Positions 1,348 to 43,570 of a DNA stretch of 64,000 nucleotides are shown here, piece after piece. A program made the translations under genes and the position numbers. The first letter of the stretch is position 1. Each line of letters begins with the position of its first letter. The notes under the pieces are model-generated. The model had not been told where the DNA came from. It was given only the letters and a program-made list of their open reading frames with translations, and did no database searches. The DNA comes from Oscillospiraceae bacterium (GTDB lineage: Bacteria > Bacillota > Clostridia > Oscillospirales > Ruminococcaceae): positions 188,243 to 252,242 of the forward strand of contig CACZDM010000002.1 in assembly GCA_902779915.1 (NCBI GenBank). Reading direction: 5' to 3'.

Positions 1348-1845
1348 ATGGCAGGAAGTGTTTTTAGAAAAAAGAGTATGGACAGGGTTTCTTCGCCAGA
1401 ACAGCTTAATGACTATATAAAAGTCTCAAATCCAGCAGTTTGGATGGTTATATCTGCTGTTGTCATTTTGCTGATCGGAATTTGCGTCTGGGGAGTTTTT
1501 GGGAAACTCGACACAGTGATTAAAGGCGGAGGATACTGCAAAGATGGAACTGTTCATTGTTATCTTCAGGAAAAAGATCTAGCAAGACTAACTCAAGACA
1601 CCAAAATAACCATTGAAGGCAAAGAATATCCCATAGCATCTGTTGCTAGAATGCCAATAGAAATTGACGAGGAAGAATATGAAACTAATGAAACCGAGCC
1701 ACATCTTTACGCGATGCACAAAAGCGGATTAGAAGAAAACGATTGGGCTTGCGATGTTTTGGTTAATGCTCCGCTTGAGGATGGTGTGTATGACACAAGT
1801 ATAACAGTCGAGAGCGTTTCCCCAATGTCCTTCATTTTAAAATGA
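1348..1845 (+). CDS. short NHLM bacteriocin system secretion protein (HlyD-like accessory)
   Basis: A 165-residue protein with a cytoplasmic N-terminus (FRKKSMDRVSSPEQLNDYI), one membrane segment at about residues 31-51 and a ~110-residue extracytoplasmic part. The N-terminal SSPEQLND and WGVFGKLDTVIKG pattern is what I know from the NHLM bacteriocin system secretion protein, a membrane-fusion (HlyD-type) partner of the NHLM ABC exporters. Unlike a typical member it has no long coiled-coil hairpin between the two lipoyl-like halves, so it is a reduced version. Position supports the call: it sits 15 nt before the peptidase-containing exporter. RBS AGGGGG precedes the ATG. Function in assembling the export complex is inference. 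Confidence 0.75.
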   Translation: MAGSVFRKKSMDRVSSPEQLNDYIKVSNPAVWMVISAVVILLIGICVWGVFGKLDTVIKGGGYCKDGTVHCYLQEKDLARLTQDTKITIEGKEYPIASVARMPIEIDEEEYETNETEPHLYAMHKSGLEENDWACDVLVNAPLEDGVYDTSITVESVSPMSFILK

Positions 1846-4050: not shown

Positions 4051-4063
4051 AGGGGGATATGAG

Positions 4064-6355: not shown

Positions 6356-7753
6356 ATGTACTACCGTGTGAAAGACAATTTTTTACTCAGGGGATGGAAG
6401 CTACTCCCGTTTGCCTTATATGACTCGGATTCACATAAAACCCACTTTTTTGACCAAAAGACGTTTTTGATGATCCTTAAGTGTGGTGGAGAGCGAGACT
6501 TTGAAGCTCAAAACCTGCCGCCTGAAGACCAGCATAGGCTTGAAGGGCTTGTAAAGCGGGGAATTGTTGAAAAAATGGCCAGGCCCCGAAGATTGAATAA
6601 AAAACAAGAATATAAATTTTTCCCTTCTAGATATATGTCTCAAGCGCAATGGTCGATAACAGGCCGATGTAACTACAAATGTAAACATTGTTTTATGTCT
6701 GCTCCAGAGGCAAGATTTGGCGAACTTTGTTTGGATCAAATGAAAAAAATAGTGAATGAGCTGAAAAAATGCGGAATATATAACGTTTCTTTGACCGGAG
6801 GAGAGCCGCTTGTTCGGAATGACTTTTTTGAAATTGTTGATGAACTCTCCAAAGCAGACATAAATATTTTATCAATTTACACTAATGGCCGTTTGATAAC
6901 TGCTGATTTGTTGGAAAAAATTAGGTCAAAAAATCTTCGCCCTAAAATCCATATGAGCTATGATGGAAAAGGCTTTCATGACTGGATCAGAGGGGTTAAG
7001 GGAGCTCAGGAAGCTGTGATAAATGCGTTTAGGATATGCCAAAAAATGAGCTTTGAGACAACAGCGCAAATGTGTATTCATAAAAAAAATAAAGATGCGT
7101 TTTGTGAAACAATGCTGGAATTGGCTAACCTAGGCTGCAAGAGGCTTAAGGTGAGTCCTGCTGTTTCTTTGGGAAATTGGTCTAAAATTTCTTCAGAATA
7201 TGCCTTGTCGACAAAGCAAGTGTATGACTGCTATCTTGAATATATCAGGCAATTTTTTGAAAATAAAATGCCAATATCACTGATGCTTGATGGATGCTTT
7301 TTGTGTGAAAAAAAGTCTGTTAAATATTCAATTCCATATACAAAGCACGGCAATAGAGTTGATGATCTTCAAAGGTTAGTTTGTGAGCATGCTAGAAATT
7401 CTCTATATATCAGTCCCAATGGAGACGTTTTGCCGTGTGTTGTCCTTTCAAACACCACTTTTAAGAATAAATTCGCCAAAATTCCAAATACTAAGTTAGA
7501 AGACATTTTGAGTGATTCATATTATATGAAAGTTATAAACTATAGGCTTAAGGATTATTTTAAACACAACTCAGAGTGTGCTAATTGCAGACACAGGTTT
7601 CTTTGTGGTGGCGGATGTCGAGGGCTTGCTGTTGCAAATGGCGGATCGGATTATTTTGCAAAAGATCTGGCTGCGTGCTTTTTCTTCAAAAATCTCTATC
7701 ATGAAAAGGTCAAAAGCGTAGCCGAAATTGCGATAAAAAAATTAAACATATAA
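6356..7753 (+). CDS. radical SAM/SPASM peptide maturase with N-terminal PqqD-like region
   Basis: A 465-residue enzyme. Residues 1-90 resemble a winged-helix PqqD-like/RRE domain, which binds RiPP leaders. Cys105, Cys109 and Cys112 (CNYKCKHC) form the radical SAM 4Fe-4S site; SLTGGEPL and SIYTNGRL follow in the barrel. The C-terminus is a Cys-rich SPASM domain (CEHARNSLYISPNGDVLPC, then CANCRHRFLCGGGC and a final Cys) that should hold one or two auxiliary clusters. Its place between the exporters and eight Nif11-leader peptides makes it the likely modifying enzyme. The chemistry (thioether, C-C, epimerisation or other) cannot be read from the sequence, because the cores have at most one cysteine each. 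RBS GAAGGGAG precedes the ATG. It may be in one transcript with the exporters, as only 78 nt separate them. Confidence 0.92.
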   Translation: MYYRVKDNFLLRGWKLLPFALYDSDSHKTHFFDQKTFLMILKCGGERDFEAQNLPPEDQHRLEGLVKRGIVEKMARPRRLNKKQEYKFFPSRYMSQAQWSITGRCNYKCKHCFMSAPEARFGELCLDQMKKIVNELKKCGIYNVSLTGGEPLVRNDFFEIVDELSKADINILSIYTNGRLITADLLEKIRSKNLRPKIHMSYDGKGFHDWIRGVKGAQEAVINAFRICQKMSFETTAQMCIHKKNKDAFCETMLELANLGCKRLKVSPAVSLGNWSKISSEYALSTKQVYDCYLEYIRQFFENKMPISLMLDGCFLCEKKSVKYSIPYTKHGNRVDDLQRLVCEHARNSLYISPNGDVLPCVVLSNTTFKNKFAKIPNTKLEDILSDSYYMKVINYRLKDYFKHNSECANCRHRFLCGGGCRGLAVANGGSDYFAKDLAACFFFKNLYHEKVKSVAEIAIKKLNI

Positions 7754-7817
7754 AAAATTAACGATATACTAAAAAATATATTTATACAGCAAAAATATGT
7801 TAGGAGGGCGATTTGCT

Positions 7818-8108
7818 ATGTCTATTGAAAATGCTAAAAAATTTTTTGAAGATTTAAATTCAGATTCAAAACTGCAGGATGAATTAAAAAATATAATGCA
7901 AAAAAACAACAATTTAAGCGATGAGCAAAGGAAAAATGAAGTCGCAAGTTTTGCAAAATCCAAGGGGTATGATTTTTTGCCCAATGATTTGGATGGCCTT
8001 GAAATTTCGATTTTTGATTTGAGCAGCGATGAACTGTCGCATGTTGCGGGAGGAGGGCTTGAGGTTGAACCTGATAAAACTGAAGACGATTGCGTTATTT
8101 TAATGTAG
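7818..8108 (+). CDS. Nif11-leader RiPP precursor peptide 1
   Basis: A 96-residue peptide. The start is taken at 7818, after TTAGGAGGGCG; an ATG at 7797 precedes the ribosome site and is rejected. The Nif11-like leader starts MSIENAKKFFEDL, has the mid-leader helix A.SKGYDFLPNDL and ends SSDELSHVAGG at residue 79. The 17-residue core is acidic with one Cys and a hydrophobic end (DDCVILM). It is the first gene after the maturase, 64 nt away, and so the most likely to be cotranscribed with it. The family members are leader-guided substrates cut and exported by a C39 exporter; the final product is unknown. Confidence 0.85.
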   Translation: MSIENAKKFFEDLNSDSKLQDELKNIMQKNNNLSDEQRKNEVASFAKSKGYDFLPNDLDGLEISIFDLSSDELSHVAGGGLEVEPDKTEDDCVILM

Positions 8109-8360
8109 TTTAATCAACTTGTCTCCTTTGCCTGGCTATAGCATAAATATGAAATGAAAATTATTAATTTGACATTAAATAACAACAAAAACATTTGGTA
8201 TGTGTTTGCACTGAGAGATGGTGATGATATTGAAAAAACCTCTCACTATCTCCAAGTGGAGACATATACATGGCAAAATTTGACCGGTCAATTAGCCAGA
8301 TTATGTTTTCAAAATTCTATTAAATTATTTAGTTTATCTCAAATTAAGGAGGAGATTACA

Positions 8361-8708
8361 ATGTCAAAAGAAAATGCTATTAAATTTTTTAAACTATCCA
8401 TTGAAAATCCTGAATTGTTGGAGGAAGCAAAAAAGCATTCGGATGCAGAAAACTTTTGCGACGCTTTAAGCAAAGTTGCAAAAGAAAAAGGCTTTGAATG
8501 CAGCGCCAAGGAACTTGAAGAAACTATGAATGTTTTGTCTAAACTAGATTCCAGTGAGATCAGCGAGGATGATCTCGAATCTGTTGCTGGCGGTAGTTGG
8601 TTGAGTGATGCGTGGAAGAAGTGTAAAAGTTTGTATGACCAATACGGCGACAGAGTTAAAAAAACATTTAACGCAGCAAAAGATGCCTGGAACAATTTTG
8701 GAAAGTAG
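8361..8708 (+). CDS. Nif11-leader RiPP precursor peptide 2, amphipathic core
   Basis: A 115-residue peptide starting at 8361 behind AAGGAGGAG. The open frame runs 69 codons further upstream to 8154, but the ribosome site and the family-typical MSKENAIKFF start settle 8361. The leader ends DDLESVAGG at residue 78. The 37-residue core carries three Trp, two Tyr, one Cys and many Lys (SWLSDAWKKCKSLYDQYG at its start) and looks like an amphipathic cationic helix, as in membrane-active peptides. This activity is inference. A 252-nt spacer separates it from peptide 1. Confidence 0.85.
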   Translation: MSKENAIKFFKLSIENPELLEEAKKHSDAENFCDALSKVAKEKGFECSAKELEETMNVLSKLDSSEISEDDLESVAGGSWLSDAWKKCKSLYDQYGDRVKKTFNAAKDAWNNFGK

Positions 8709-8884
8709 AAATGACAAATCATAAAAATTTTAACATTTAATTTAAATCACTGCGGAGGAGGAAAAATGCGTGTAACTGTCAATAACATTTTAAATACATA
8801 GCCATATGTTTAAAAATATTATTTGGCTTAACTTGTTTTTCCTCCTCCTTTTCTTTATTTTAAAAAAACACGCACATTACATAT

Positions 8885-8961
8885 GGTGCTTTCCTTTATG
8901 GCTTGGAGGTTATTTGGGCTTATTTATATAAAACGATTTGCAAGTCATAGAGGAGAGCACC
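8885..8961 (+). repeat. 21-bp RNA hairpin between precursor genes
   Basis: Arms 8885-8905 and 8941-8961 pair at every one of 21 positions. Three pairs are G-U when read on the + strand; on the - strand they would be A-C mismatches. This indicates an RNA structure of the + transcript. No U-run follows at once, so it is not a typical terminator. Confidence 0.7.
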
Positions 8962-8980
8962 CCCCAATAATCGGCATAAT

Positions 8981-9010
8981 TTGACTTTTTTGCCGCGTGT
9001 TTATTATAAG
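8981..9010 (+). promoter_or_regulatory. probable promoter of precursor peptide 3
   Basis: TTGACT at 8981-8986 and TTATAA/TATAAG at 9004-9010, 17-18 nt apart, lie about 77 nt before the TTG start at 9087. This suggests that peptide 3 is transcribed on its own. Confidence 0.5.
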
Positions 9011-9086
9011 TGTATATATTGTGTGTGCGTGTGCTTCTCCAAATTAGGTTATATATATAATTTGGTTTGATTAGGAGGAGTTTATA

Positions 9087-9542
9087 TTGTCAAAAGAAAA
9101 TGCAAAAAAGTTTTGTGAGCTTATAGGAAGGAATCCAGAGATTTTAAAAGAATGCGAAAAGTATGACAAAGGCCAGAATGATATTTACGAAGTTTATAGT
9201 GAACTAGCAAAAGCTAAAGGCCTTAATTGCACAGCTTGCGAATTAAAAGAAGTTGAAAAACCATCTGAAAATATGAGCGATGATGATCTGGCGGCGGTTT
9301 CTGGAGGCGCTTCAGTTGAGCAGGGAATAATGGCTGGGCTTTCAGCATTGTCTGCATTTGGCAGCGCTGTCATGAATTCCAGAGGTAAAGACGGTAAAAT
9401 AAACTGGAAAGACCCAAGTCTTTATATTGGCGGCGGCATGGCAGCCTTGGGAGCCGGATTTGGATCTTGGATGAACTATGGCAATAACGGCGGAAACGGA
9501 AATGCAAATGCAAATGGAAATGGAAATGGCGCTCAAAAATAA
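9087..9542 (+). CDS. Nif11-leader RiPP precursor peptide 3, long Gly/Asn-rich core
   Basis: A 151-residue peptide, the longest of the set, starting with TTG at 9087 behind TTAGGAGGAG. The leader starts MSKENAKKFCEL and ends SDDDLAAVSGG at residue 74. The 77-residue core first has a small-residue hydrophobic stretch (GIMAGLSALSAFGSAV), then GGGMAALGAGFGSW, then a Gly-Asn-Ala tail of simple repeats. This is the two-segment GxxxG-rich look of unmodified class II bacteriocins such as two-peptide types. It has no core Cys, so a Cys-based modification is excluded. It may be exported without modification. Confidence 0.85.
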   Translation: MSKENAKKFCELIGRNPEILKECEKYDKGQNDIYEVYSELAKAKGLNCTACELKEVEKPSENMSDDDLAAVSGGASVEQGIMAGLSALSAFGSAVMNSRGKDGKINWKDPSLYIGGGMAALGAGFGSWMNYGNNGGNGNANANGNGNGAQK

Positions 9543-9783
9543 AGCTAGATGTTAAATGGAACTATATCTGATTTGGTTTCAGTTTGTTGATGTATATCGC
9601 CGTTTTTTCTTCTAAACAAGATTAAAAACACATTATTAAATGCAACTGGCTTAAAGTGGCTTTTTGGCAGGGGGATCTTGAAAAATTTCTCAGGGCGGGT
9701 TTTATTTAAAATTGAGGATGCTGGAAGCCATTAGTCAAAATTAATGTTTTAGATTAAGCTTATTTTAAAGGAGGTTTATCAAC

Positions 9784-10110
9784 ATGTCTAAAAAGAGTTT
9801 GCAAAAATTTATCAATGACTCGCAAAAGGATAAAAAACTAAAAAACATATCTGAAGAATCTCGCAAAAAATTTGCTTCCAAGGAAGAAAGATTCAGCTAT
9901 GTTGTTGAAGAAGCAAAAAAATTTGGCTATGATTTCACAGTAGACGATATGCTCAACGAAATGGAAGAAAATCTTTGTTATGGATTTTCAGATGATGAAC
10001 TTGCAAATGTTTCGGGGGGAACGGGCGGAGGCTTTTTATCATCTTCAGCAAACCAAGAGCGGAAGGAAACTAAAAACTTTTTTCTCGGTATTACGGGCAA
10101 AAACCAATAA
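9784..10110 (+). CDS. Nif11-leader RiPP precursor peptide 4
   Basis: A 108-residue peptide with ATG at 9784 behind AAAGGAGG. The leader opens MSKKSLQKFINDSQKDKKL, has VVEEAKKFGYDFTVDD in the middle and ends SDDELANVSGG at residue 79. The 29-residue core begins TGGGFLSSSANQ, is basic and has no Cys. The leader is close to that of peptide 5 (both have KFI.DS.KDKKL and FGYDFTVDD-like parts), so these two are recent duplicates with different cores. A terminator-like hairpin follows at 10141. Confidence 0.85.
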   Translation: MSKKSLQKFINDSQKDKKLKNISEESRKKFASKEERFSYVVEEAKKFGYDFTVDDMLNEMEENLCYGFSDDELANVSGGTGGGFLSSSANQERKETKNFFLGITGKNQ

Positions 10111-10140
10111 TATTGTTGTTGAGATAAAGAAAAGGGCTTT

Positions 10141-10169
10141 ATCAACACCTGATAGCTTTGTTGATTTTT
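10141..10169 (+). terminator. rho-independent terminator after precursor 4
   Basis: ATCAACA (10141-10147) pairs with TGTTGAT (10159-10165) across an 11-nt loop and is followed by a short T-run. It lies 31 nt after the stop codon. Confidence 0.6.
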
Positions 10170-10387
10170 GTTTAAAATTTAGGCAGATTGATGGATTTAG
10201 GTTGATTTTTTGAACTAAAAGAAAATGTGTGGTAAAAAGCCAAGCTAACTTTCAAAAAAATCGTTAATCCGAAATTGAATAGATTAGTACATAGCTTGTT
10301 TAGCAGCTTATAAAGAAATGTTGTTTTGTCAAAAGGGCGCCAAACAAGCGAATGTTTTAAATTTATTGATTGAGGAGACGATTTATT

Positions 10388-10783
10388 ATGTCAAAAGAAG
10401 ATTTGAAAAAATTTATTAAAGACTCCGCCAAGGACAAAAAACTCCAGGAAATTTTGGAAAATGGAGGAAATATGAACAATTCCTCCAAAGAACAAATTGA
10501 ATATGTTGTTCGAGAAGCAAAATCTCATGGATATGATTTTACTGTTGATGAGTTTGTGGAGTTGTTTAAAAAATCAGATTCAAAATCAGGCGAAATTATG
10601 GACGATGAGCTTTCGGATGTTGCGGGCGGAACAGGGCCGATATATGATTTTTGCATAAAAGTTAAACGAGGCCTTGAAGATCTCATTGAAGGCCCTCCAT
10701 CCCTCACAAAAAAAGCTAAACGTAAACTACATGATGTTGAAAATAATTTGAATTTAGATAACAAATGGTATAGAAAAATCTAA
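10388..10783 (+). CDS. Nif11-leader RiPP precursor peptide 5
   Basis: A 131-residue peptide starting at 10388 behind TTGAGGAGACG; an in-frame start at 10370 precedes the ribosome site. The leader starts MSKEDLKKFIKDSAKDKKL, has SHGYDFTVDEF and ends MDDELSDVAGG at residue 81. The 50-residue core starts TGPIYDFCIKVKRGLEDL. It is strongly basic, with a single Cys, Pro-Pro and a WYRKI end. The leader is paralogous to peptide 4, while the core has no resemblance to it. Confidence 0.85.
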   Translation: MSKEDLKKFIKDSAKDKKLQEILENGGNMNNSSKEQIEYVVREAKSHGYDFTVDEFVELFKKSDSKSGEIMDDELSDVAGGTGPIYDFCIKVKRGLEDLIEGPPSLTKKAKRKLHDVENNLNLDNKWYRKI

Positions 10784-11210
10784 ATTGTTTTTGGTCTAGC
10801 CTAAATTGCTGCAAGGGGAAGAATTTCAAAATAATTTCTTCTTGCAGCTTGGCCAGGCTTGTTGCGCCAGCATTTTGCAGGTCTATTGAAAGGGGGGATT
10901 TGTATGTGAAAAAAAGGTTTGACTGCTATAAATTTTTCAAAGCTATAGCTTAAATTCCAAAGTCAAAATAAAGAATCTACATACCTCTTTCAGTTAATTT
11001 TTTGTTAGCATATAAACAATTAAATTCAACTGAATGAGTTGATGTTTCAAATCGGTTGTTTGAAAAAAGGGGGCGATTTTTAAACTAAAATAAATTTTCT
11101 GTTAAAAATTTTTGGATCAGGTTGGGTCTTTATTTTATGATATACCAAAACATTCGATTATTTTAATAATTTCTGTTAATTTTTTATCAATTATTTAGGA
11201 GGTAATTACT
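10784..11210 (+). other. 427-nt spacer with hairpins and a possible 15-residue ORF
   Basis: A hairpin pairs GCTGCAAG (10808-10815) with CTTGCAGC (10841-10848). A second, nested structure spans 10887-10992: TGAAAGGGG with CCTCTTTCA, TATGT with ACATA, TTTGACT with AGTCAAA, and GCTATA with TATAGC. Its outer arm contains a strong ribosome site (AGGGGGG, 10891) followed by a GTG at 10906 and a 15-codon ORF (MKKRFDCYKFFKAIA) ending at 10953. No sign of selection on this ORF can be seen. The rest is AT-rich and without recognisable features. Confidence 0.5.
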
Positions 11211-11393
11211 ATGTCTATAAAAAATTCCAACAACTATATCGAAGATGATCTAAATAAAGTTTCAGGAGGAACTGGCTTTTTTAAAAAGATAGGCAACAAG
11301 TTCAAGGGCTGGTTTAGCAAAAAGGATAAAACCGATAAAGAAATAAAAGACATGTCAGAGAGTCCTCTTTTGCCTAATGATGACGAAGATTAG
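11211..11393 (+). CDS. mini Nif11-type precursor peptide 6 with almost no leader
   Basis: A 60-residue peptide with ATG at 11211 behind TTTAGGAGG. Only the end of a Nif11 leader remains: MSIKNSNNYIEDDLNKVSGG, residues 1-20, lacking the helical body seen in its neighbours. The 40-residue core begins TGFFKKIGNKFKGWFSKKDK. It is a cationic, aromatic amphipathic segment followed by an acidic tail. It may be a natural leaderless-like variant, or a gene that lost its leader by internal deletion; the intact ribosome site and clean frame favour expression. Whether the maturase can bind it is doubtful, while the C39 peptidase site is retained. Confidence 0.7.
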   Translation: MSIKNSNNYIEDDLNKVSGGTGFFKKIGNKFKGWFSKKDKTDKEIKDMSESPLLPNDDED

Positions 11394-11460
11394 TTTGTTT
11401 TTAATATACTCACAGTATAATTGTTAGCAATAAGTTTAGTCAATGTTATGTTAACGTGGG

Positions 11461-11488
11461 TTGAAAATAGTTTTGTTAGTCGTATAAT
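11461..11488 (+). promoter_or_regulatory. probable promoter for peptides 7, 8 and the metallopeptidase
   Basis: TTGAAA at 11461-11466 and TATAAT at 11483-11488, spacer 16 nt, lie 46 nt before the GTG at 11534. The three following genes are closely spaced (30 and 37 nt). Confidence 0.6.
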
Positions 11489-11533
11489 CGCGATTTTATA
11501 ATGCCAATTTGACATAAAGGAGCTGATTTTAAA

Positions 11534-11827
11534 GTGGCTTTGGAAGAAGCAATAAAATTTTTGGAATATGCGAAGTCAAACGCTGATTTAGACGACAAAA
11601 TAAACCAAATTTTATCGAGTAATGCTGGAAAAATTGATAAATATAGCCCAATAATTCCTGTTGCCAAAGAAAAGGGATATCGGTTCACAATTAGTGAACT
11701 TGAAGAGGCGCTTTTGATGCCGGAGCGTGACTTTGATGAAGATGAACTTTTAAACATTGCTGGCGGTTTGAATAGTGGGTCAAATGACTCAAATTCCAAA
11801 TGCAAAGGAATAGGTTGGTCTATGTGA
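11534..11827 (+). CDS. Nif11-leader RiPP precursor peptide 7
   Basis: A 97-residue peptide starting with GTG at 11534 behind AAAGGAGCTG. The leader MALEEAIKFLEYAKSN and the middle AKEKGYRFTISELEEAL are Nif11-like, and it ends DEDELLNIAGG at residue 78. The 19-residue core is Ser/Asn/Gly-rich with one Cys and one Trp near the end (KCKGIGWSM). It is the first gene of a probable three-gene operon with peptide 8 and the HExxH protein. Confidence 0.83.
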   Translation: MALEEAIKFLEYAKSNADLDDKINQILSSNAGKIDKYSPIIPVAKEKGYRFTISELEEALLMPERDFDEDELLNIAGGLNSGSNDSNSKCKGIGWSM

Positions 11828-11857
11828 TTTTTTTTAACCTTTGAGGAGGTTATTTAT

Positions 11858-12226
11858 ATGTCTTTGAAAGATGCAAGAAAATTTATTGTTGATTTTGGTT
11901 CAGACCCAACTCTCAGGCTTAAAATTGTCCAGATTAAGCTAAAAAAAGGCAAAAAAAATTTAAGTAACTTTGATAAACTGACGTTAATGCAGACTGCTGC
12001 CAGGGACCGTGGATATCATTTCACCATGGACGAACTCAAAGAAGCAAATAATTGCACATTTGGAGAAGTCGAGGATTTGGAATTGGTTAACGTTTCAGGG
12101 GGCCTAACAACCAACAAACATGCCCTCTCGCAGGCGTTTCCAATAACAAGCATCGACGACTTGTTTGATATAGATCTGGCAGCTAAAGCGGATTCAGATC
12201 TGAGCGCTGATTCGGAAACATGTTAG
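11858..12226 (+). CDS. Nif11-leader RiPP precursor peptide 8
   Basis: A 122-residue peptide with ATG at 11858 behind TTGAGGAGG. The leader opens MSLKDARKFIVDFGSDPTL and has DRGYHFTMDELKEA in the middle; the end LELVNVSGG (residue 82) lacks the usual Asp-Asp-Glu. The 40-residue core is acidic and ends in Cys (SADSETC). It is unlike any other core in the set. It lies 37 nt before the metallopeptidase-like gene, so the two are probably cotranscribed. Confidence 0.83.
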   Translation: MSLKDARKFIVDFGSDPTLRLKIVQIKLKKGKKNLSNFDKLTLMQTAARDRGYHFTMDELKEANNCTFGEVEDLELVNVSGGLTTNKHALSQAFPITSIDDLFDIDLAAKADSDLSADSETC

Positions 12227-12263: not shown

Positions 12264-13103
12264 GTGGGGCTGGCTTCAAAATTTAATTTAAATGGTGATG
12301 AGAAAAAAATTTTTGAAGATTATATTTCAAATAAAATGGGGGAAAAACTTCAGCCGTCAAAGGATGAAGAATTTTTGGATAGATGGAACGCTTGGATTGA
12401 CGAATCCTCAAAAAAGGGCGTCGCATTCGTTTTAAATTCATATCTTATTCCAAAACGTCCCGTTGAATTTAGAAAGCCCGAGTGCGTAAGCGTCAGCATA
12501 TATGAATCGATTGCGGGAAAAATTCCAATAATTGTTGTTGGCGATGATGATGATTTTGAGAATCTCATAATTAATCTTGCGTATCGCGGCGTTAGGCCAG
12601 ACAACATCCACCAGCAAGGAGCTTCATTTCTCTCCGGAAAAACAAACAGGTTTATTGTTCTTTCCAAAAAGCCGTATAGCAACATTCCGGCGAGTTGGAT
12701 GGGCCTTGAGGAGGAAGATTGGAGAAAAAAATCCATGGTTTTGCGAAGAGCACACGAATGCACCCACTACTATACACGCAGATACTATGGAACATCGCAA
12801 AACAATTTGCATGATGAGCTCATGGCGGACTTTTTTGGGCTATATGCTGCATTTGGCAAGTATCAATCAAAGTGGTTCACTCACTTTATGGGAATTGACG
12901 GGCAAAATCTCGACGGCAGGCTCTCGCTATACACTAGAGACCTTCCAAAGGCCGTTGTTGCCGCGATTGGCCAGGTCGGGGTTTGCTGCTCGCGTTTTCT
13001 TGAAAATTGGTCTGAGTCCCATGAATTTAAAAGTATGAAGGAGCCTGAGAGGGTTGATTTTCTCTGTGAATTGGGAATTTCCGGCATGTTCGAAAAATGT
13101 TAG
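12264..13103 (+). CDS. HExxH metallopeptidase-like protein of the Nif11 cluster
   Basis: A 279-residue protein starting with GTG at 12264 behind TTTAGGAGG. The first ~15 residues (MGLASKFNLNGDEKKIFEDY) do not form a signal peptide and no membrane segment is seen, so it should be cytoplasmic. Residues 164-168 are HECTH, an HExxH zinc-site signature, followed at 185 by HDELMADFFG, whose Glu185 or Asp189 could be the third ligand. I do not recognise the family. It sits last in the operon with peptides 7 and 8. Possible roles are leader trimming, proteolytic maturation of a core, or self-protection; which one is not decidable. A strong terminator follows. Confidence 0.7.
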   Translation: MGLASKFNLNGDEKKIFEDYISNKMGEKLQPSKDEEFLDRWNAWIDESSKKGVAFVLNSYLIPKRPVEFRKPECVSVSIYESIAGKIPIIVVGDDDDFENLIINLAYRGVRPDNIHQQGASFLSGKTNRFIVLSKKPYSNIPASWMGLEEEDWRKKSMVLRRAHECTHYYTRRYYGTSQNNLHDELMADFFGLYAAFGKYQSKWFTHFMGIDGQNLDGRLSLYTRDLPKAVVAAIGQVGVCCSRFLENWSESHEFKSMKEPERVDFLCELGISGMFEKC

Positions 13104-30335: not shown

Positions 30336-33300
30336 TTATTTCAAATCAGTCTTAAATTTAAACATCATCTTCCCCAGATTTCCATCCGCGTCTTTTTCGT
30401 GTATGCCATCTTTTGCAATAACAAATTTTTTGCCACTATCACTCAATGTCAAATTTGTGCTGTTTAATCCGCAATCATCGCTGAATTTAACATTATCACT
30501 GTCGTTTAAAGTCATTTTGTCAAATCCACTTCCAATTTCAAATGGCAAATCAATTTTTTTCAAGTTGTTCGGTATGTCTTTTGATATATCCAGATCTTTT
30601 TTGGCTTCGCTTCCACTTAACTTTATACAATCAGGCGCAATTTGATATTTAAGCCCGCTTGATGTCTGATTAACTCCGCGATTATATACGCAACAAAGTT
30701 CCCCGTATTTATATACTGCGACGTCATCTTTTGTGTAACAACTGTTTTTGCCTAAATCGAAATTTTTAACATGCGAATCTTCGAGAAAATCAAAAGCATT
30801 TGAACCAGGAACTTTAAAAGAGTCAAATCCCTTTGAAATCATAAAAGCAATTTTAGTGTCTCGCAAATATAGCGGAATATCTTGGTCGATATCTAGCGGT
30901 TTTTTATTTTCTTCATCACGCCAAATTTTGAAATTTCCAAACTTAATTTGATATTTGATTCCATTTGAAAGAGTGTTATAGTCGCCGCCAAAATTGAGCA
31001 ACTGACAATCAAAATTTTTGTCGTCATTATCATTTTTAACATAAAGCCCGTCTTCTTTAATGACATATTTTTTACTTCCACCTTTAAATTTTAACTGATC
31101 CTTTGTTAATTTACATTTATGATCAAACAAAATTTTTGCGCTGTCATCCAAAGTCACCTGGTTAAATCCCTCGCCAATCAGAAGAGGCAAATTGAGTTTT
31201 TTCAAATTATTTGGTATATCTTTTGATATATCCAGATCTTTTTTAACATTACTGCCTTCTAGCCAAATAGAGTTATTACAAATTCTATAGTTGACTCCGC
31301 TTTCAGTAGTATTTATTCCTTTGTTATATACAAATACTTGTTTATCGTCTTTATATAGCGCGACGCCATCTTTAACATACGAATTCAAATCGAAACTTGA
31401 CGCGCCAACGGATTTTTTTGAAGTGATGTCAATGTGTTTAACATTAGAGTCATTCCGAAATTCCAGGTTGTCTATTTCATCTTCAGGGCAAATTAAAGAG
31501 TCGATTCCGCTTGATATAGAAAACTTCATTTTGAAATCTTTTAGAAATTGTGGGATATCTTTTTCTATGTTCAAAGATTTTTGATTTTTGTCATTGCTTG
31601 CCAGGATGATGCCATTGGAACCTAGTCGATATATCAAGCCTGGTTTGAAAGAGACTAATTCTTTGATGGTTGGCTTTTTGGCCGATTTATCATAATCCAC
31701 GCCTCGAAATTTGAATCCATCCTCTATATTTATTGTTTGATCAAAATATTTTGAGTCAAATGATAAATTGTCTAGATCAAAGCCGGATGGAACATCTATC
31801 TGTTTAAAACCGTTTTTTATGAGAAATGGGCGATTGAGATCTTTTAAATCCTGTGAAAGTTTTGAAATATCCAAATGAGTTATTTTTTTGCCCCCGTCTT
31901 TTCCATCATTTCCCTCCAAAGAAACAAATTTATCGTGTATTTGATATTTAATTCCGCTGGAATCGGTTATCATTTTTTTGTTAAAAATTTTGATAAGCTT
32001 TCCTTTTTTTCCACCGGCATCTTTTTCATAGATTCCAAAATCATTAGTGGTATATTTGCTGTTTTTTTCAGACAAAATCACTTGCTTTACGTTGCATACT
32101 GAATCAAAGTCAACTTTTTCGACCTCTTCGTCGCTCAAGCTAATGCTCTCAATTCCGCCGCCGATCTTGATGGAATAGCCGTATTTTAACAATGATTTTG
32201 GAATTTTAAAAGTTCCTTTAGCTCCATTTCGATCCCCCGTTATAAGTATTTGAGGAGAACGGGTGTTATTAGTTAAGCAAAATTTAATCCCTGTTTCTTG
32301 ATCACCAAAGTTGTCCAAAAAGCCATATAGCTGACTCGAAGGGTTTTCAGAAAGCTCTGTTAAAGTAAGAAAAATATGGTGTGGGTTGTTGAGCAAATCT
32401 TTGTTTGTTTTTTCAAGTGATTTATTTTGGTAAAATCCTGAAAAGAAGTTTTTGATTTTTTGCGCATTTAAATTTCTTAAAACGACACTTATATTGGCAG
32501 GCAGTGTTTGGCTTGAGAATTGATTGTTTCCTGAATTTGTCGGGTCTTGCAATGAGTCTGGAGCTCCCCAGGTCGCGTCAATCAACGCCCATCCAGCTTC
32601 CTTTTTATGGTCAACCAGGTTATTTTGATCATCATAGGATCCGCCCTCATTCTTTTCCAGATATATTGCGGTGTATGCGTGAGTATATATCTGATCGGGT
32701 TCTTGGAGCGTTCCAATAACCGCGCTTGGAATTCCCGCCATTCTCATCATTAAAGCTGTCAGCTGGGCCTTTCCAGCGCAAACCCCGGTTTTATTTTTGA
32801 AAACGAAAAATGGATCTTGAGGCTTGCGACAATTTGAAACAGTGCTCTCCTGATCATATTTAATATTTTTTGCAACCCAGCGATATATGGCTTTTGCAAT
32901 CCTCCAGCTTTTATTCATTTGGAAGTGGCGACTATATTTTCCTCTTTGTGTTTTGACTCGATTTATTCCCTCTCCTTCATATTTAGAAAATTCTTTTTTG
33001 ACGTCTTCAATTGGCATGTCTTTTGCAGGGGTTCGGTCCTCAACTTTTTTTACTAAACCTTTGACAACTCCCTCTATCTCTTTATATGTTTCTTGCTCAT
33101 CTAGTGTTTGGTTTTTGATTGAACCATCGGGATATTTTACTTCATATTTCATCTGCTGGTTTAAATCTTCTGTTTTTGGCAGATCTTTAAATTTATCTGT
33201 ATGTTGAGAAAATTCCCCTATCCTGTCGAAGCAAAAACCATATATCTTAGTTTTATCTATTTTCCCCAAAGACTTATTACTTTTTTTGTCGAAAAGACTT

Positions 33301-36245
33301 CCATTTTTTATTTCATATTTATTACTGCTGGTATTTTTTAAAATTATTTTTTCCAAATCCGAAGCAGAGTCAATGTTTATGTCTTCATCACAAAGATCAG
33401 CTATAGACTTAATCCCGGAGCCTATTCTAAACTGGTTGCAAACTTTTTTCAATTCGTCGGGTATTTTAAAATTCTCTAAAGGAGCATCTAAGTTTAAATT
33501 TTGAATGTTTATGGTTTGATTTTTTAAATCATAAAAAATATTGGCGCCATTTAATTTTTTTATTGTGTCAAACATGTTTCCTTTAGTTTTGCTTCCAGTA
33601 GAATAGGAAGCAAAATAAACTGCAACGCCATTTGAATCTGTAATATAATTATTTGACGTCGAGGCATCTATATGCTCCAAATCTGAAGCCATATTCAAGT
33701 TAACGCATTCATTTCCGCTTAAAACGATAGATTTAATTCCTAGGCCTATATTATACATAGTATTGGCATTACCTATTTTTTTCAACTCATTCGGTATTTT
33801 AAAGTTTTCCAAAAGATTGTTTTTATCATCATTTGACAATGTTATAGAATTAGTTGAAGGATTAATTTCAAAATTAACATCGCCACTCACTGTGCTGATT
33901 TTTCCGCTTGTTTTTAAAACTTTAACCATATTTTCAACAGTGTTTCCGTTGATATCTGTGGTTTTCTTAAAAACAGCGATTTTATTCGTATCCAGAATAT
34001 ATTTTGTTGAGTCGGTCACGTCAACCTCTTTTAGATCAGATGCCGCGGATAAATCAACTTCATCGTCTCCATGCAAAACGATCGATTCAATTCCCGGTCC
34101 AATAATAAATTGACTGTTGGGCCAAGTTTTAAAATTATTGAGAAGTTCGGAATCATATAATTTATTAATATTAAGATCTAGATTTTTGACAGGGGATTTG
34201 GAGTCGGTCCCTGTGAGTCGCACCTCTTTGTCCCTTCCCTGCAGGCATTTCACTTGCCCCACATTTTTTACTCTTCGACAATGTCCAACATATGTTCCAC
34301 TTAATTTGTGATATAAATAAAGAAATCCATTTGAGTCTCTCATTTCATATATTTTTGATTGGCTGGCGTCTATGGATTCAAGATCATTCGCAAGCCCTAT
34401 ATTAACCGTGTCATTTTCTCCCAAAACTATGGATTTAATTCTGGGGCCGATAAAAATGTTTGAAGACATTTTCCTCACAGAATCCGGTATTCGAACATCT
34501 TCCAAAGGATTATCTCGATCGCTCCCACGTAATTCTAACCCGCCAAAAACGCCATAACAAATTTGGATTTTGCCGGCATCTATGTCTATGCTTGTTTTTA
34601 ATTGTTTAACAAAAACATCGCTCCCACCAGTAGTTGATCTTTCATATAGAGCAATTCCGTCTTGATCTTTTATGTATATATTGGATTTTTCCACGTTAAC
34701 GTCTTTTAATCCGCTAAAAGCCAAGTTCAAAATTTTCTCGTTTCCTTTCAGGATCATTGATTCAATTCCGGATTCTATATAAAAATCACAACAAACCTTG
34801 CTCAAACTGGAAGGAATCTCAACATTTTTTAATGAAACTTTTTCTATCTGGCTGTTCAAATTCCATTTACCCGGACGGCCACCCAAAGAGTTGTCAAATG
34901 TAAAATGAATTTTTCCAATAACTCCGCTTTTTCGCAAAAGCTTAACCATTTTATCCGGCGTTCCATCGGTTGATTTTTCATATAGCGCAACTCCATCTTC
35001 ATCCAAATAGTATATACTGGACTTTGTCGTGTCAACATATATCAAGTTATCTGCCATGCTTAAATCAAGTTTTTCGTTCCCGTTTAAAATCAAAGACTGT
35101 ATGCCGGGTTGAATTTTAAACGGAGCGTTGTTAAAGTATTGCTTGTTTAGATCTATAAGCTGATTTGGAATTTTAACATTTTCTAGGTTGGATAACTGGG
35201 CGTCATTTTTTGATATGGATATGAATTTTGAAAGGCTACTCGGATCATTGTTTTCTTCAATCGAAAAATCAAGTCCATATCGAGAATTTGACTTGGATTT
35301 TAGCAATTTAACAGGCGTTTTGCTTTCTTTTCCGTCTTTGCTAACTATCTCATAAAGTATATTATCTTCTGTGACATATGATCCCAATTTAGATTTGCCT
35401 TCAACTTTTTCAAGATCCTTGGCCTGACTAAAATCTAAATTTGTCTGCGAATCAAAAGTTAAAGATTTTATGCCTTTGCCAACTTTTATTAATTTATTAG
35501 TTTTTTTCAAAGACTCGGGAAGCGTTATATCCTGCGGGTCTTGAGACTGGTTATACACTGTAAATTGATCATCATTTGCGCTATATTCAACCGTGAGCAT
35601 ACCTATATCTTTCTTTTTCAGCAAAACTTTAACAAGCTTTTTTTGCCCATCCTCTGTTTTTTCATATATCGCAACATTATCTTTGTCTTTTTCATATATA
35701 TCGGAATTTGTTGTATCCACATTTTCAAGGCTTGCGGCGCTGCTTAGGTCAAGCCGATCATTTTTGCCTAGAGTTAAAGATTTAACGTCTTTGCCAACTT
35801 TTATATTCACGTTGCCTAAATTTGATATATATTCAGGGAGTTTAATATTATCAGCTTCAAGCGTGATATTCACCTTTTTGTTTTCGGTGTTAAAATAGAA
35901 AATATAACCATCGGACTTTTTGTATGGCTTGATAATGTTTTCTAAGTCTCCTTCTGTTCCGTCGGGTAGCTTATTGTAGAGTTTAATAAGTTCACCCGCA
36001 TATTCAACTATATATCGCGATGAATCTTTTGCATCTATATGTTCAATCTGATTCGGAAACCCCTCAGTAAATGCTAGTTTAGCATCACCTTTTAATTTTA
36101 TATATTTAATTCCACACAAAATATTAATCACATTATCTCCTTTTTTGATTTTGCTAAGCATAGCATCATCCACAACACATTTTGTCATTAAATTAGGGTC
36201 ATCGACTATTTCTAGGCTTCCCAAAACGATCGTCTCCGAACCCAT
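30336..36245 (-). CDS. giant repeat protein with transglutaminase-like domain (frame-shifted main part)
   Basis: A 1,969-codon frame from the first Met, but the frame is open further upstream through the hexapeptide repeat to about 36,446. There it should join the leader-bearing ORF 36212-36859 (see that entry); rejoined, the protein has about 2,170 residues. It holds many repeats of ~75 residues with the pattern I(E/K)SI(V/L)L.G...ND.A.DL..(V/I)D...S.Y, then a GVA.Y.K hairpin, like BspA-type leucine-rich repeats. In the middle is a transglutaminase/protease-fold domain with Cys1156 (GVCAGKAQL), His1189 (YTHAYTAIYLE) and Asp1223 (ALIDATWG) in this ORF's numbering, i.e. an intact triad. It is probably a surface or secreted protein. 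Partners and substrates are unknown. Confidence 0.8.
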   Translation of the reverse strand: MGSETIVLGSLEIVDDPNLMTKCVVDDAMLSKIKKGDNVINILCGIKYIKLKGDAKLAFTEGFPNQIEHIDAKDSSRYIVEYAGELIKLYNKLPDGTEGDLENIIKPYKKSDGYIFYFNTENKKVNITLEADNIKLPEYISNLGNVNIKVGKDVKSLTLGKNDRLDLSSAASLENVDTTNSDIYEKDKDNVAIYEKTEDGQKKLVKVLLKKKDIGMLTVEYSANDDQFTVYNQSQDPQDITLPESLKKTNKLIKVGKGIKSLTFDSQTNLDFSQAKDLEKVEGKSKLGSYVTEDNILYEIVSKDGKESKTPVKLLKSKSNSRYGLDFSIEENNDPSSLSKFISISKNDAQLSNLENVKIPNQLIDLNKQYFNNAPFKIQPGIQSLILNGNEKLDLSMADNLIYVDTTKSSIYYLDEDGVALYEKSTDGTPDKMVKLLRKSGVIGKIHFTFDNSLGGRPGKWNLNSQIEKVSLKNVEIPSSLSKVCCDFYIESGIESMILKGNEKILNLAFSGLKDVNVEKSNIYIKDQDGIALYERSTTGGSDVFVKQLKTSIDIDAGKIQICYGVFGGLELRGSDRDNPLEDVRIPDSVRKMSSNIFIGPRIKSIVLGENDTVNIGLANDLESIDASQSKIYEMRDSNGFLYLYHKLSGTYVGHCRRVKNVGQVKCLQGRDKEVRLTGTDSKSPVKNLDLNINKLYDSELLNNFKTWPNSQFIIGPGIESIVLHGDDEVDLSAASDLKEVDVTDSTKYILDTNKIAVFKKTTDINGNTVENMVKVLKTSGKISTVSGDVNFEINPSTNSITLSNDDKNNLLENFKIPNELKKIGNANTMYNIGLGIKSIVLSGNECVNLNMASDLEHIDASTSNNYITDSNGVAVYFASYSTGSKTKGNMFDTIKKLNGANIFYDLKNQTINIQNLNLDAPLENFKIPDELKKVCNQFRIGSGIKSIADLCDEDINIDSASDLEKIILKNTSSNKYEIKNGSLFDKKSNKSLGKIDKTKIYGFCFDRIGEFSQHTDKFKDLPKTEDLNQQMKYEVKYPDGSIKNQTLDEQETYKEIEGVVKGLVKKVEDRTPAKDMPIEDVKKEFSKYEGEGINRVKTQRGKYSRHFQMNKSWRIAKAIYRWVAKNIKYDQESTVSNCRKPQDPFFVFKNKTGVCAGKAQLTALMMRMAGIPSAVIGTLQEPDQIYTHAYTAIYLEKNEGGSYDDQNNLVDHKKEAGWALIDATWGAPDSLQDPTNSGNNQFSSQTLPANISVVLRNLNAQKIKNFFSGFYQNKSLEKTNKDLLNNPHHIFLTLTELSENPSSQLYGFLDNFGDQETGIKFCLTNNTRSPQILITGDRNGAKGTFKIPKSLLKYGYSIKIGGGIESISLSDEEVEKVDFDSVCNVKQVILSEKNSKYTTNDFGIYEKDAGGKKGKLIKIFNKKMITDSSGIKYQIHDKFVSLEGNDGKDGGKKITHLDISKLSQDLKDLNRPFLIKNGFKQIDVPSGFDLDNLSFDSKYFDQTINIEDGFKFRGVDYDKSAKKPTIKELVSFKPGLIYRLGSNGIILASNDKNQKSLNIEKDIPQFLKDFKMKFSISSGIDSLICPEDEIDNLEFRNDSNVKHIDITSKKSVGASSFDLNSYVKDGVALYKDDKQVFVYNKGINTTESGVNYRICNNSIWLEGSNVKKDLDISKDIPNNLKKLNLPLLIGEGFNQVTLDDSAKILFDHKCKLTKDQLKFKGGSKKYVIKEDGLYVKNDNDDKNFDCQLLNFGGDYNTLSNGIKYQIKFGNFKIWRDEENKKPLDIDQDIPLYLRDTKIAFMISKGFDSFKVPGSNAFDFLEDSHVKNFDLGKNSCYTKDDVAVYKYGELCCVYNRGVNQTSSGLKYQIAPDCIKLSGSEAKKDLDISKDIPNNLKKIDLPFEIGSGFDKMTLNDSDNVKFSDDCGLNSTNLTLSDSGKKFVIAKDGIHEKDADGNLGKMMFKFKTDLK

Positions 36246-36859
36246 AGGCTGTCTTTCACAGTCCTTAAGTTTTTCAAATAGGTCATCAGGACTTGCTTTG
36301 TTAGCTGAGCCTTCTTGATTAGCTGAACCTTCTTGGCTAGCTGAGCCTTCTTGGTTAACTGAGCCTTCTTGGCTAGCAGAACTTGCTTGGCTAGCTGAAC
36401 CTTCTTGGCCAGCTGAGCTTTCTTGGCTAGCTGAGCCTTCTTGGCTAGCAGAACTTGAGCAGAACTTGCTTGGCCAGCTGAGCCTTCTTGACCAGCTGAG
36501 CCTTCTTGGCCAGCAGAACTTGCTATGGTTGTTGCGTTAGAAGTCTGCATAGAAATTTCATTTGGATTGACTGCATGCGCAGAAAACGCTCCAATTCCAG
36601 TCAACATAGTAACTATGGCTATCGGGGCCAGGAGCTGTTTTAACCCCACCCCTCCCGCGACCAGAGATAGATCTTGATCCGAGATTGGAGTTGATTTTTG
36701 CATCAAATCATTGAAGAAATGTTCATATTCATCATAGTCACATTTTCCGTTCATAAATTTACTATAACTTTCCTTCAAATCTTTGCATTTTTTGAATTCG
36801 TTTCTAAATTTTTCGTCTCTTTTAATTTTTTCAACAAATTTTTCCAAAGCGCTGTCCAT
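36212..36859 (-). CDS. Nif11-type leader and hexapeptide repeat, N-terminal part of the giant protein
   Basis: Encodes MDSALEKFVEKIKRDEKF onward: a 70-residue Nif11-type leader (KCDYDEYEHFFNDL in the middle, SDQDLSLVAGG at its end), then a hydrophobic segment (~74-94) ending in FSAHA, and then hexapeptide repeats SA(G/S/N)Q(E/A)(G/S). An 11-bp tandem duplication at 36447-36468 shifts the frame. Beyond it the ORF reads an alternate frame of the same DNA repeat (KKAQLA-like) and stops at 36212. Removing one copy rejoins the 30336-36245 frame with the hexapeptide intact. The ATG at 36859 follows AAGGGA, and a strong promoter lies ~70 nt upstream, so it is not a dead fragment at the 5' end. Confidence 0.8.
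   Translation of the reverse strand: MDSALEKFVEKIKRDEKFRNEFKKCKDLKESYSKFMNGKCDYDEYEHFFNDLMQKSTPISDQDLSLVAGGVGLKQLLAPIAIVTMLTGIGAFSAHAVNPNEISMQTSNATTIASSAGQEGSAGQEGSAGQASSAQVLLAKKAQLAKKAQLAKKVQLAKQVLLAKKAQLTKKAQLAKKVQLIKKAQLTKQVLMTYLKNLRTVKDSLWVRRRSFWEA
36291..36517 (-). repeat. 18-bp tandem repeat coding SA(G/S/N)Q(E/A)(G/S)
   Basis: Twelve imperfect 18-bp units (216 bp) plus an 11-bp extra. The coding units, in order, are variants of SAGQEG, SASQEG, SASQES, SAGQAS, SVNQEG, SANQEG and SANKAS. Confidence 0.9.
36447..36468 (-). repeat. 11-bp tandem duplication that shifts the frame
   Basis: AGCAGAACTTG occurs twice in direct succession (36447-36457 and 36458-36468). Only one copy fits the 18-bp repeat; 11 is not a multiple of 3. 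Confidence 0.95.
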
Positions 36860-43260: not shown

Positions 43261-43570
43261 TATGCTTAATGTGCCCATTGCTAATAATTTCAATAACATA
43301 AATAACACAATCCAAAATGCAACTCTCAACAATATATGAATTGTGAATTTTGATAATGATATAAACAACATTTAAAACAATAGTCCATATATGCTAATTT
43401 AAACTTTTATGACTGCAAATTTACATGCACCACACAAAAAATAAAAATTAACATTTATTTACATTTTGTTTACAAATAATTAACAACTTTTGCATGAATA
43501 TATGCTATAGTATATCCATCTCGTGTTTAATAAATATATTATGAAAAATCAAAAGGAGATTGAACGTGTA
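43261..43570 (+). other. 310-nt stretch with Asn-rich remnant frames
   Basis: The first ~120 nt read in another frame as N-rich peptide (MLNVPIANNFNNINNTIQ), then INFD-like fragments, suggesting a former C-terminal extension of member 2. The last part has a -10-like TATAGT at 43506. Confidence 0.45.

What the first reader, a model, noticed from the sequence alone, without database searches (positions are those of the whole stretch)
30336..36859. Giant transglutaminase-like repeat protein carrying a RiPP (Nif11) leader
The N-terminus encoded at 36859 shares the leader plan of the eight Nif11 peptides at 7.8-12.2 kb: EKFVEKIKRDEKF against KFIKDSAKDKKL, CDYDEYEHFF against YDFTVDEFVEL, and SDQDLSLVAGG against SDDELANVSGG. 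Behind it come a hydrophobic segment, hexapeptide repeats, BspA-like repeats and a transglutaminase-fold domain with an intact Cys-His-Asp triad; about 2,170 residues in all. Double-glycine leaders normally mark peptides under 150 residues. This suggests either that a C39 exporter handles a giant surface protein, or that a leader was recruited for another sorting route. No exporter is adjacent; the only one visible lies 26 kb away.
Basis: partly seen in the sequence, partly recalled or inferred. Interest (0 to 1): 0.85.

Follow-up and report, generated by a model that had tools for sequence, protein, structure and literature searches.

The report
Peptide-export leader on giant proteins
Bacteria of one Ruminococcaceae genus carry, on the front of proteins up to 2,243 residues long, the kind of leader that normally marks tiny exported peptides, placed just ahead of a segment that looks like an ordinary secretion signal; the cell's one peptide exporter of the matching type would likely cut that leader off before the giant leaves the cell.

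Summary
The core observation holds, with one correction. The window gene is not one open frame: a 215-codon leader ORF and a 1,969-codon main ORF meet at a frame break inside an 18-bp repeat array. A same-genus ortholog (G004) has the same leader in one intact 2,243-aa frame. The leader (residues 1-70) matches the Nif11 model over positions 6-68 of 68, below its cut-off (18-20 of 32.3 bits); a profile of five such leaders has a solved Nif11 leader (9ZN4) as best PDB hit.

It is not a one-off. Five of eight genus genomes hold 20 such leaders on long proteins and five on ~100-aa peptides. The same five, and only they, have an NHLM-type C39 exporter over cut-off. A signal-peptide-like segment follows the double glycine in 20 of 20 long and 0 of 5 short ones. 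Homologous transglutaminase bodies occur with this leader, with other Nif11-like leaders, or with plain Sec signals.

Best reading: a two-part export signal, the leader likely cut by the NHLM exporter and the exposed signal then used by Sec. Direct export through that exporter is the main rival. Cleavage and route are untested.

The parts
36650..36859 (-). Nif11-like leader, residues 1-70, ending ISDQDLSLVAGG
   Evidence: TIGR03798 19.8 bits, profile 6-68 of 68; A1 profile best PDB hit 9zn4 E 2.4e-5; dN/dS 0.09-0.12 in three ortholog pairs
36650..36655 (-). double glycine (residues 69-70), predicted C39 cleavage site
   Evidence: GG present in all 23 rows of A2
36572..36649 (-). signal-peptide-like segment, residues 71-96: Lys, hydrophobic stretch, AHA
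   Evidence: max 17-residue Kyte-Doolittle 2.08 starting 5 residues after the GG
36302..36514 (-). 18-bp repeat array (12.2 copies) holding the frame break; an 11-bp unit is doubled at 36447-36468
36212..36859 (-). leader ORF as assembled, 215 aa
30336..36245 (-). main ORF, 1,969 aa, repeat protein with transglutaminase-fold domain
   Evidence: 1652 of 1967 aligned residues identical to G004 ortholog
32649..32903 (-). transglutaminase core (PF01841 match); Cys at 32778-32780, His at 32679-32681, Asp just outside at 32577-32579
   Evidence: PF01841 E 3.9e-13; triad positions
1861..4050 (+). NHLM-type exporter with C39 peptidase (ABC1), Cys30/His104/Asp120 present
   Evidence: TIGR03796 962 bits, cut-off 853; residues located by motif
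4043..6277 (+). second NHLM ABC subunit (ABC2)
   Evidence: TIGR03797 729 bits, cut-off 709
1348..1845 (+). short HlyD-like partner, 165 aa
   Evidence: TIGR03794 33 bits (cut-off 156), profile 1-50 of 421 only
6356..7753 (+). radical SAM/SPASM-type enzyme beside the exporter
   Evidence: 64 NCBIfam families at E<=1e-3; the 25 shown are radical SAM or related models, none over its cut-off
7797..12226 (+). array of Nif11-type leader peptides
   Evidence: seven TIGR03798 matches at E<=1e-3 in the window

Best explanation
The gene, intact in a sister genome but frame-broken here as assembled, encodes a transglutaminase-fold repeat protein whose first 70 residues are a Nif11-like double-glycine leader placed directly in front of a signal-peptide-like segment, and this pair likely works as a two-part export signal: the leader would dock on the genome's single NHLM-type C39 exporter, would be cut after the glycines, and so would free a signal peptide predicted to take the giant out by Sec. 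Shown from sequence: the leader, the GG, the segment behind it, its recurrence on 20 long proteins in five genomes, the exporter in the same five genomes, and the exchange with plain Sec-type signals on homologous bodies. Inferred: docking, cutting, the use of Sec afterwards, and a cell-surface location. Whether the frame break is a switch, a recent lesion or an assembly error is not known.
For: Leader identity. Intact giant: G004 ortholog, 2,243 aa in one frame with 62 of 70 leader residues identical to the window. Recurrence: 25 full leaders in G000 and G002-G005, 20 on long proteins and 5 on 98-104-aa peptides. Of the 20, two are frame-broken (window, G002_C79) and five run off a contig end, one of them (G004_C55) after only 108 aa, counted as long because its ortholog G000_C4c has 238; one further row (G003_C11b) was cut before its GG and is left out. 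Motif L(-7)..[VI](-4).GG in 24 of 25; the 25th has Ile at -7. Size and signal segment go together: 20 of 20 long ones have a 17-residue stretch of mean hydropathy 1.64 or more after the GG, with a Lys or Arg near its start by reading; 5 of 5 short ones reach at most 0.78. Exporter: PF03412 matches, and TIGR03796 over cut-off, in exactly the five genomes with leaders, 5 of 8. Signal exchange: 5 of 41 transglutaminase proteins of the genus are leader-led (two of them frame-broken), 33 have a Sec or lipoprotein-type signal; of 24 database hits, the query's own record included, 16 have the GG motif and 6 a Sec signal by reading. P0017 (Nif11-like leader) and a G003 protein with a plain signal are 43% identical over 382 columns, starting at residue 184 (behind leader, segment and a linker) and residue 37. 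Constraint: leader dN/dS 0.12, 0.09, 0.09 in the three giant pairs against 0.30 and 0.40 for the body.
Against: No cleavage or export was observed. The leader scores below the curated Nif11 cut-off. Of 23 leaders scanned, 10 match TIGR03798 at E<=1 and more (13) match another GG-leader model, the CTB bacteriocin family. Without its last 15 residues the type-A profile is barely above shuffles (18.9 against a maximum of 18.7), so much of the signal is the GG motif, and leader lineages A and B do not match the P0017-type lineage outside that motif. The gene is 24-31 kb from the exporter. The co-occurrence rests on 8 related genomes, and the three that lack the exporter also lack the whole transglutaminase family, so it may be lineage rather than function; G005 has a second, weak C39 match (25.3 bits). 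The short peptides also have Arg just after the GG, so that charge is not specific to Sec. The segment after the GG has a higher dN/dS than the leader in five of eight pairs, up to 1.60. Database leaders of the P0017 type have no Lys/Arg between the GG and the hydrophobic stretch, which fits Sec poorly. C39 exporters are thought to keep the cut substrate from escaping into the cytoplasm (PMC6363468, passages), which a hand-over to Sec would have to get round. One leader pair (G000_C10 against G002_C48) has dN/dS 1.63 (2 synonymous changes). No signal-peptide predictor was available.
Confidence: 0.42

Rival explanations
1. The NHLM exporter itself carries the whole giant out: the leader docks, is cut at the GG, and the unfolded chain is threaded through the ABC channel; the hydrophobic segment behind the GG then serves as a membrane anchor or is trimmed outside.
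For: The same leader type is used on ~100-aa peptides that have no signal-like segment, so one leader, one route is the simplest rule. Leader and Sec signal replace each other on homologous bodies. The P0017-type leaders lack a Sec-type charged region. GG-led envelope or secreted proteins exist: MAM, 135 aa (PMC12184118, passages) and calculated 66 kDa in Treponema denticola (PMC11879956, passages).
Against: The 20 long leader proteins of the genus keep a signal-peptide-like segment and the 5 short ones lack it, which direct export does not need. The C39 exporter PCAT1 has a cavity of about 15,000 cubic angstroms, judged to hold one CtA cargo of about 9,000 (PMC6959990, passages). The HlyD-like partner is only 165 aa.
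Confidence: 0.3
2. The leader is never removed: it is the cytoplasmic tail of a type II membrane protein (N-in, C-out) or stays behind after signal peptidase cuts at AxA, and it tethers the giant to, or regulates it through, the exporter or another partner.
For: A 70-residue tail followed by a positively charged residue and a hydrophobic stretch has the layout of a signal anchor. Ax21 is a warning: it was proposed as a substrate of a C39 exporter and turned out to be processed by Sec (PMC3897388, passages; Ax21 lacked the GG-leader motif).
Against: The GG is kept in 25 of 25 leaders and its motif in 24, which a tail would not need. The same leader fronts short peptides without a membrane segment.
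Confidence: 0.2
3. The leader is a relic: a small Nif11-like gene fused to signal-peptide genes by chance and spread by duplication, with no role in export today.
For: The match to Nif11 is weak outside the GG motif; one leader pair shows dN/dS above 1; the window copy and the G002 copy are frame-broken.
Against: Low dN/dS of the leader (0.09-0.31) in seven of eight pairs, unrelated bodies sharing it, and further Nif11-like leader lineages on the same kind of body elsewhere.
Confidence: 0.06

Closest known systems
Nif11-type (N11P) leader peptides with NHLM/NHLP exporter (Haft, Basu and Mitchell 2010, PMC2887384, passages read)
   Same: About 70 residues ending in an ELSDEELEAVAGG-type motif, in paralogous families; genome carries TIGR03796/TIGR03797 exporter beside classic Nif11 peptides.
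   Different: Their table gives 23 residues after the GG. Here complete, unbroken long proteins have 155 (G002_C90a) to 2,173 (G004 giant) residues after it, starting with a signal-peptide-like segment; the gene is not next to the exporter.
MAM of Faecalibacterium with its C39 transporter (PMC12184118, passages read)
   Same: GG-led envelope protein, proposed from models and proteomics as substrate of a C39 exporter; same bacterial order by recall.
   Different: 135 residues, a 21-residue leader, gene beside its transporter in most species, and no signal-like segment after the GG was described in the passages read.
Bacteriocin-type signal domain proteins of Treponema denticola, TDE_0422/0424 (PMC11879956, passages read)
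   Same: GG-type leader on large proteins (calculated 66 kDa); a band of about 61 kDa in the culture supernatant; ABC transporter genes downstream.
   Different: Bacteriocin-type leader rather than Nif11, transporter genes close by, much smaller, no Sec-like segment reported in the passages read.
Sec-type transglutaminase-domain proteins of the same genus
   Same: Homologous transglutaminase bodies and a similar hydrophobic signal.
   Different: No leader: the Sec-type signal is at the very N-terminus.
PCAT1 with substrate CtA (PMC6959990) and LahT150 (PMC6363468), passages read
   Same: C39 domain recognising the last residues before a GG; LahT150 cuts Nif11 leaders, and its recognition motif lies in the last 13 residues.
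   Different: The substrates described in the passages read are short peptides, some tagged with a carrier protein.

Membership tests
Nif11-like leader family (TIGR03798 / PF07862) | score at or above the curated cut-off | tested here: not met
   18.1 bits on the 215-aa ORF and 19.8 on residues 1-110, against 32.3; PF07862 15.7 against 23.8
Nif11-like leader family (TIGR03798 / PF07862) | alignment over essentially the whole leader profile | tested here: met
   profile 6-68 of 68; 65 aligned columns against an 82-column profile of seven window Nif11 peptides, P 8.4e-7
Nif11-like leader family (TIGR03798 / PF07862) | similarity outside the GG motif | tested here: inconclusive
   without the last 15 residues 18.9 against a shuffle maximum of 18.7 of 40, P 0.0024
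Nif11-like leader family (TIGR03798 / PF07862) | GG motif with acidic/Leu pattern before it | tested here: met
   ISDQDLSLVAGG; 24 of 25 leaders match L..[VI].GG
Nif11-like leader family (TIGR03798 / PF07862) | helical leader fold as in 9ZN4 | tested here: inconclusive
RiPP precursor | short core peptide after the GG | tested here: not met
   2,173 residues follow the leader in the intact G004 protein
RiPP precursor | modifying enzyme beside the precursor gene | tested here: inconclusive
   none seen by eye among the neighbouring ORFs printed; no family scan was made of them; the window's radical SAM gene is at 6356-7753
NHLM/C39 exporter substrate | NHLM exporter with intact C39 residues in the genome | tested here: met
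   TIGR03796 962 bits; Cys30, His104, Asp120; 5 of 8 genomes, same as leaders
NHLM/C39 exporter substrate | gene next to the exporter genes | tested here: not met
   24-31 kb away
NHLM/C39 exporter substrate | cleavage after the GG by the C39 domain | not testable with these tools
   needs protein
Sec signal peptide protein | charged n-region, hydrophobic core, small-x-small end | tested here: met
   VGLKQLLAPIAIVTMLTGIGAFSAHA; by hydropathy and reading only, no predictor
Sec signal peptide protein | signal at the N-terminus of the protein | tested here: not met
   starts at residue 71 behind the leader
Transglutaminase-like superfamily (PF01841) | profile over cut-off and Cys-His-Asp triad | tested here: met
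   50.1 bits against 23; triad
BspA-like leucine-rich repeats | match to a leucine-rich repeat family | tested here: not met
   none among the four Pfam matches listed at E up to 10; filters drop most weak matches

The most novel reading that the evidence does not exclude
A bacterial export code in two locks: a RiPP-type Nif11 leader masks a Sec signal peptide, and only the C39 peptidase of the peptide exporter unmasks it, so that giant proteins of unrelated bodies and tiny peptides are released by one and the same peptidase, with the leader swapped on and off homologous proteins in evolution.
Probability: 0.35. Interest if true: 0.87.

Novelty: new variant of a known kind. Interest (0 to 1): 0.68.

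Why it matters
Nif11 leaders are read as flags for small natural-product peptides. If they also direct giant proteins, genome miners have been filing part of a secretome under RiPPs, or missing it because the leaders score below the cut-offs. The layout makes a question directly testable: can a C39 peptidase act as a gate in front of another export route, or can a C39 exporter thread a 2,000-residue chain? The exchange of leader and Sec-type signal on homologous bodies offers natural matched pairs for that test. In the searches made here (openly licensed PMC papers only) no title or abstract start in the listings described a Nif11 leader on a large protein; passages were read in nine papers.

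Tried and rejected
Considered and rejected. (a) A single continuous 2,170-aa protein in the window: the frame breaks in the array. (b) A chance GG: made unlikely by the intact ortholog, the paralogs and the shuffled-profile control. (c) A leader unique to this gene: the genus has 25 full examples. (d) Actin-nucleator-like (proline-rich plus WH2) bodies in the G000:C4 kind of protein: suspected by eye; Pfam listed no WH2 at E<=1 for two of them and none at E<=0.01 for a third, so dropped. (e) BspA-type repeats: no Pfam support. (f) Large Nif11 proteins elsewhere in the order through TIGR03798: 17 of 394 genomes match at E<=1e-4 (own included), no open frame above 210 aa in the 50 matches; but that threshold would miss the giants' own leaders, and in some genomes only 14 of up to 27 first-look candidates were scored, so this is a weak negative. 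(g) Other giants with this leader in the protein database: only the G004 protein itself among 57 candidates of like length; six leader-led proteins of 364-768 aa with the other leader type. (h) The organisms behind P0012-P0026: P0017 matched only the window's genus in samples of 391 class genomes, 398 phylum genomes (both E<=1e-20) and 297 family genomes (E<=1e-15), with at most 2-4 candidates scored per genome, so their exporters could not be checked. (i) Nif11 models on those database leaders: PF07862 was not listed for any of eight scanned at E<=0.5; TIGR03798 was listed for four of ten scanned at E<=0.1, at best 20.9 bits. (j) A transglutaminase relative of known structure: P0009 gave none at E<=0.01. 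(k) Structure of the leader: helical but of moderate confidence, weak matches. (l) The dN/dS script stopped with an error after printing eight pairs; the missing comparisons were made.

Caveats. The name of the window's own genome was not given. Assembly of a repeat array can create frame errors.
Full report
1. What is in the window. The stretch 30336-36859 on the minus strand is not one frame. It holds a 215-aa ORF from the ATG at 36859 and a 1,969-aa ORF ending at 30336. They overlap just behind an 18-bp repeat array (36302-36514, 12.2 copies) in which an 11-bp unit occurs twice in tandem at 36447-36468. The main ORF has a transglutaminase core with the Cys-His-Asp triad and internal repeats, but no Pfam leucine-rich repeat was listed.

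3. It recurs. A profile of five leaders searched in 100 genomes, own included, gave strong matches only in G000 and four of its seven genus mates; outside the genus the best was E 2e-4. Reading the N-termini gives 25 full leaders in the five genomes: 20 on long proteins and 5 on peptides of 98-104 aa, one per genome. Of the 20, two are frame-broken (window, G002_C79) and five run off contig ends (G002_C48, G002_C90b, G004_C42, G004_C55 after 108 aa, G000_C10). A further leader was cut by a contig end before its GG and is left out. The G004 ortholog of the window giant is 2,243 aa in one frame; a 2,117-aa protein of G005 carries the other leader type on a body whose Pfam matches are all below cut-off and mostly to coiled-coil families. 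The 504-aa and 988-aa proteins of G000:C4 are repeat-rich and proline-rich as far as printed. Unrelated bodies therefore share one leader family. In the protein database no other giant of like length had the type-A leader, but six proteins of 364-768 aa had the other type, and P0010 and P0011 (1,075 and 877 aa) have type-A leaders.

4. What follows the GG. In 20 of 20 long proteins a 17-residue stretch with mean hydropathy of at least 1.64 starts within 14 residues of the GG, with Lys or Arg near its start by reading; in 5 of 5 short ones the highest value is 0.78. Several end in AxA. In G003 the sequence behind the GG reads like the plain signal peptides of that genome (compare G003_C8 with G003:C4). 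The segment has a higher dN/dS than the leader in five of eight pairs, values running from 0 to 1.60.

5. The exporter. The window's 1861-4050 is NHLM ABC1 (962 bits, cut-off 853) with the C39 residues in place, 4043-6277 is ABC2, and the HlyD-like partner is short. PF03412 is found in 5 of 8 genus genomes (one match each, a second weak one in G005), TIGR03796 over cut-off once in each of the same 5, and TIGR03798 in the same 5. Caution: transglutaminase cores too are confined to those five, so shared descent alone could give this pattern.

6. Leader and Sec signal are exchanged. The genus has 41 PF01841 matches. Forty were read and the window's own. By script, 32 of 40 have a Sec or lipoprotein-type signal, 3 have the leader and 5 neither. 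Of these 5, one has a lipobox signal by eye, one is the main frame of the broken G002 giant, and three lack an intact N-terminus. Totals: 33 Sec-type, 5 leader-led (two frame-broken), 3 undetermined, of 41. In the protein database 24 proteins match the 700-aa G002 paralog, its own record included: 16 have the GG motif, 6 a Sec signal by reading, 2 no visible signal. Twelve of the 16 (P0013-P0017, P0019, P0021-P0026) form one type and P0012 another. These match the window's Nif11 peptides even without the GG end (P 1e-7 for a profile of ten of the twelve, 5e-8 for P0012), although as single sequences they stay below the NCBIfam cut-off or are not listed and PF07862 was not listed for any of eight scanned. 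P0017 and a G003 protein with a plain signal are 43% identical over 382 columns, beginning at residue 184 and residue 37.

7. Selection. Leader dN/dS is 0.12, 0.09 and 0.09 for the three giant pairs and 0.14-0.31 for four more pairs; one pair (G000_C10 against G002_C48) has 1.63 on 2 synonymous changes. The body of the giant has 0.30 and 0.40; the bodies of the other five pairs have 0.18-0.54.

8. The frame break. Two of three orthologs (G000, G002) are broken inside the array, by different lesions as read, with long open frames behind (1,969 aa; at least 1,606 aa to the contig end); G004 is open. Phase variation by slippage, fresh lesions or assembly error would all look like this.

9. Mechanism. 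Because the segment behind the GG goes with size, because Sec-type signals are the rule in the family, and because the GG motif and the exporter are kept, I favour a two-part signal: C39 cut first, Sec second. Direct threading through the exporter is the main rival. That one leader family fronts both peptides without such a segment and giants, and that the P0017-type leaders lack a charged Sec-like region, speaks for it. None of cutting, route or surface location was tested.

10. Known relatives. Haft et al. 2010 (PMC2887384) define the Nif11 leaders with about 23 residues behind them and the NHLM exporter. MAM (PMC12184118, 135 aa) and the 66-kDa T. denticola proteins (PMC11879956) show that GG leaders are not confined to tiny peptides, so this is a new variant rather than a new kind. 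Ax21 (PMC3897388) shows that a proposed C39 substrate can turn out to be a Sec protein. LahT150 (PMC6363468) gives a ready tool, and PCAT1 (PMC6959990) the cavity size. For all of these only passages were read; two further papers looked at (PMC8939145, PMC3482391) and a Legionella type I secretion paper (PMC6959600) held nothing on large Nif11 proteins in the passages shown.

Noticed in passing
window 36302-36514 and L145 (G002:C79) 3644-4300: The giant's frame is broken inside the repeat array in two of three orthologs, by different lesions, with long open frames behind: a possible on-off switch or assembly error.
   Followed up: partly
L062:2265-2579, L050:1640-1954, L060:2326-2622, L054:1490-1804, L056:2385-2687: One ~100-aa peptide per genome with the same leader type as the large proteins and an amphipathic-looking core of about 18-20 residues.
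   Followed up: partly
L063:2057-5023 and L011:2219-4476 (G000:C4): Three leader-led proteins in a row (988, 504, 238 aa); the first two have proline-rich stretches and the second YNQDYDQGYS-type repeats.
   Followed up: partly
L010:4576-7706 (G000:C5): A second cluster: four ORFs with GG leaders upstream of a radical SAM-like ORF (by eye) on the same strand.
   Followed up: no
window 12264-13103: 279-aa ORF behind the Nif11 peptides with an HECTH (HExxH) motif; no NCBIfam match at E<=1e-3.
   Followed up: no
window 43523-46171, repeats at 44093-44461: 882-aa protein with an ordinary-looking signal peptide and an 18-bp A/C-rich tandem array of 20.5 copies; two more signal-peptide-like proteins lie upstream (40604, 41539).
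   Followed up: no
L042 (G004:C12:17188-17433): A 250-aa ORF that looks like the 700-aa leader protein with its middle missing, including part of the leader.
   Followed up: no
G001, G006, G007: Three genus mates have no match at the thresholds used for the C39 domain, Nif11 leaders and transglutaminase cores alike.
   Followed up: partly
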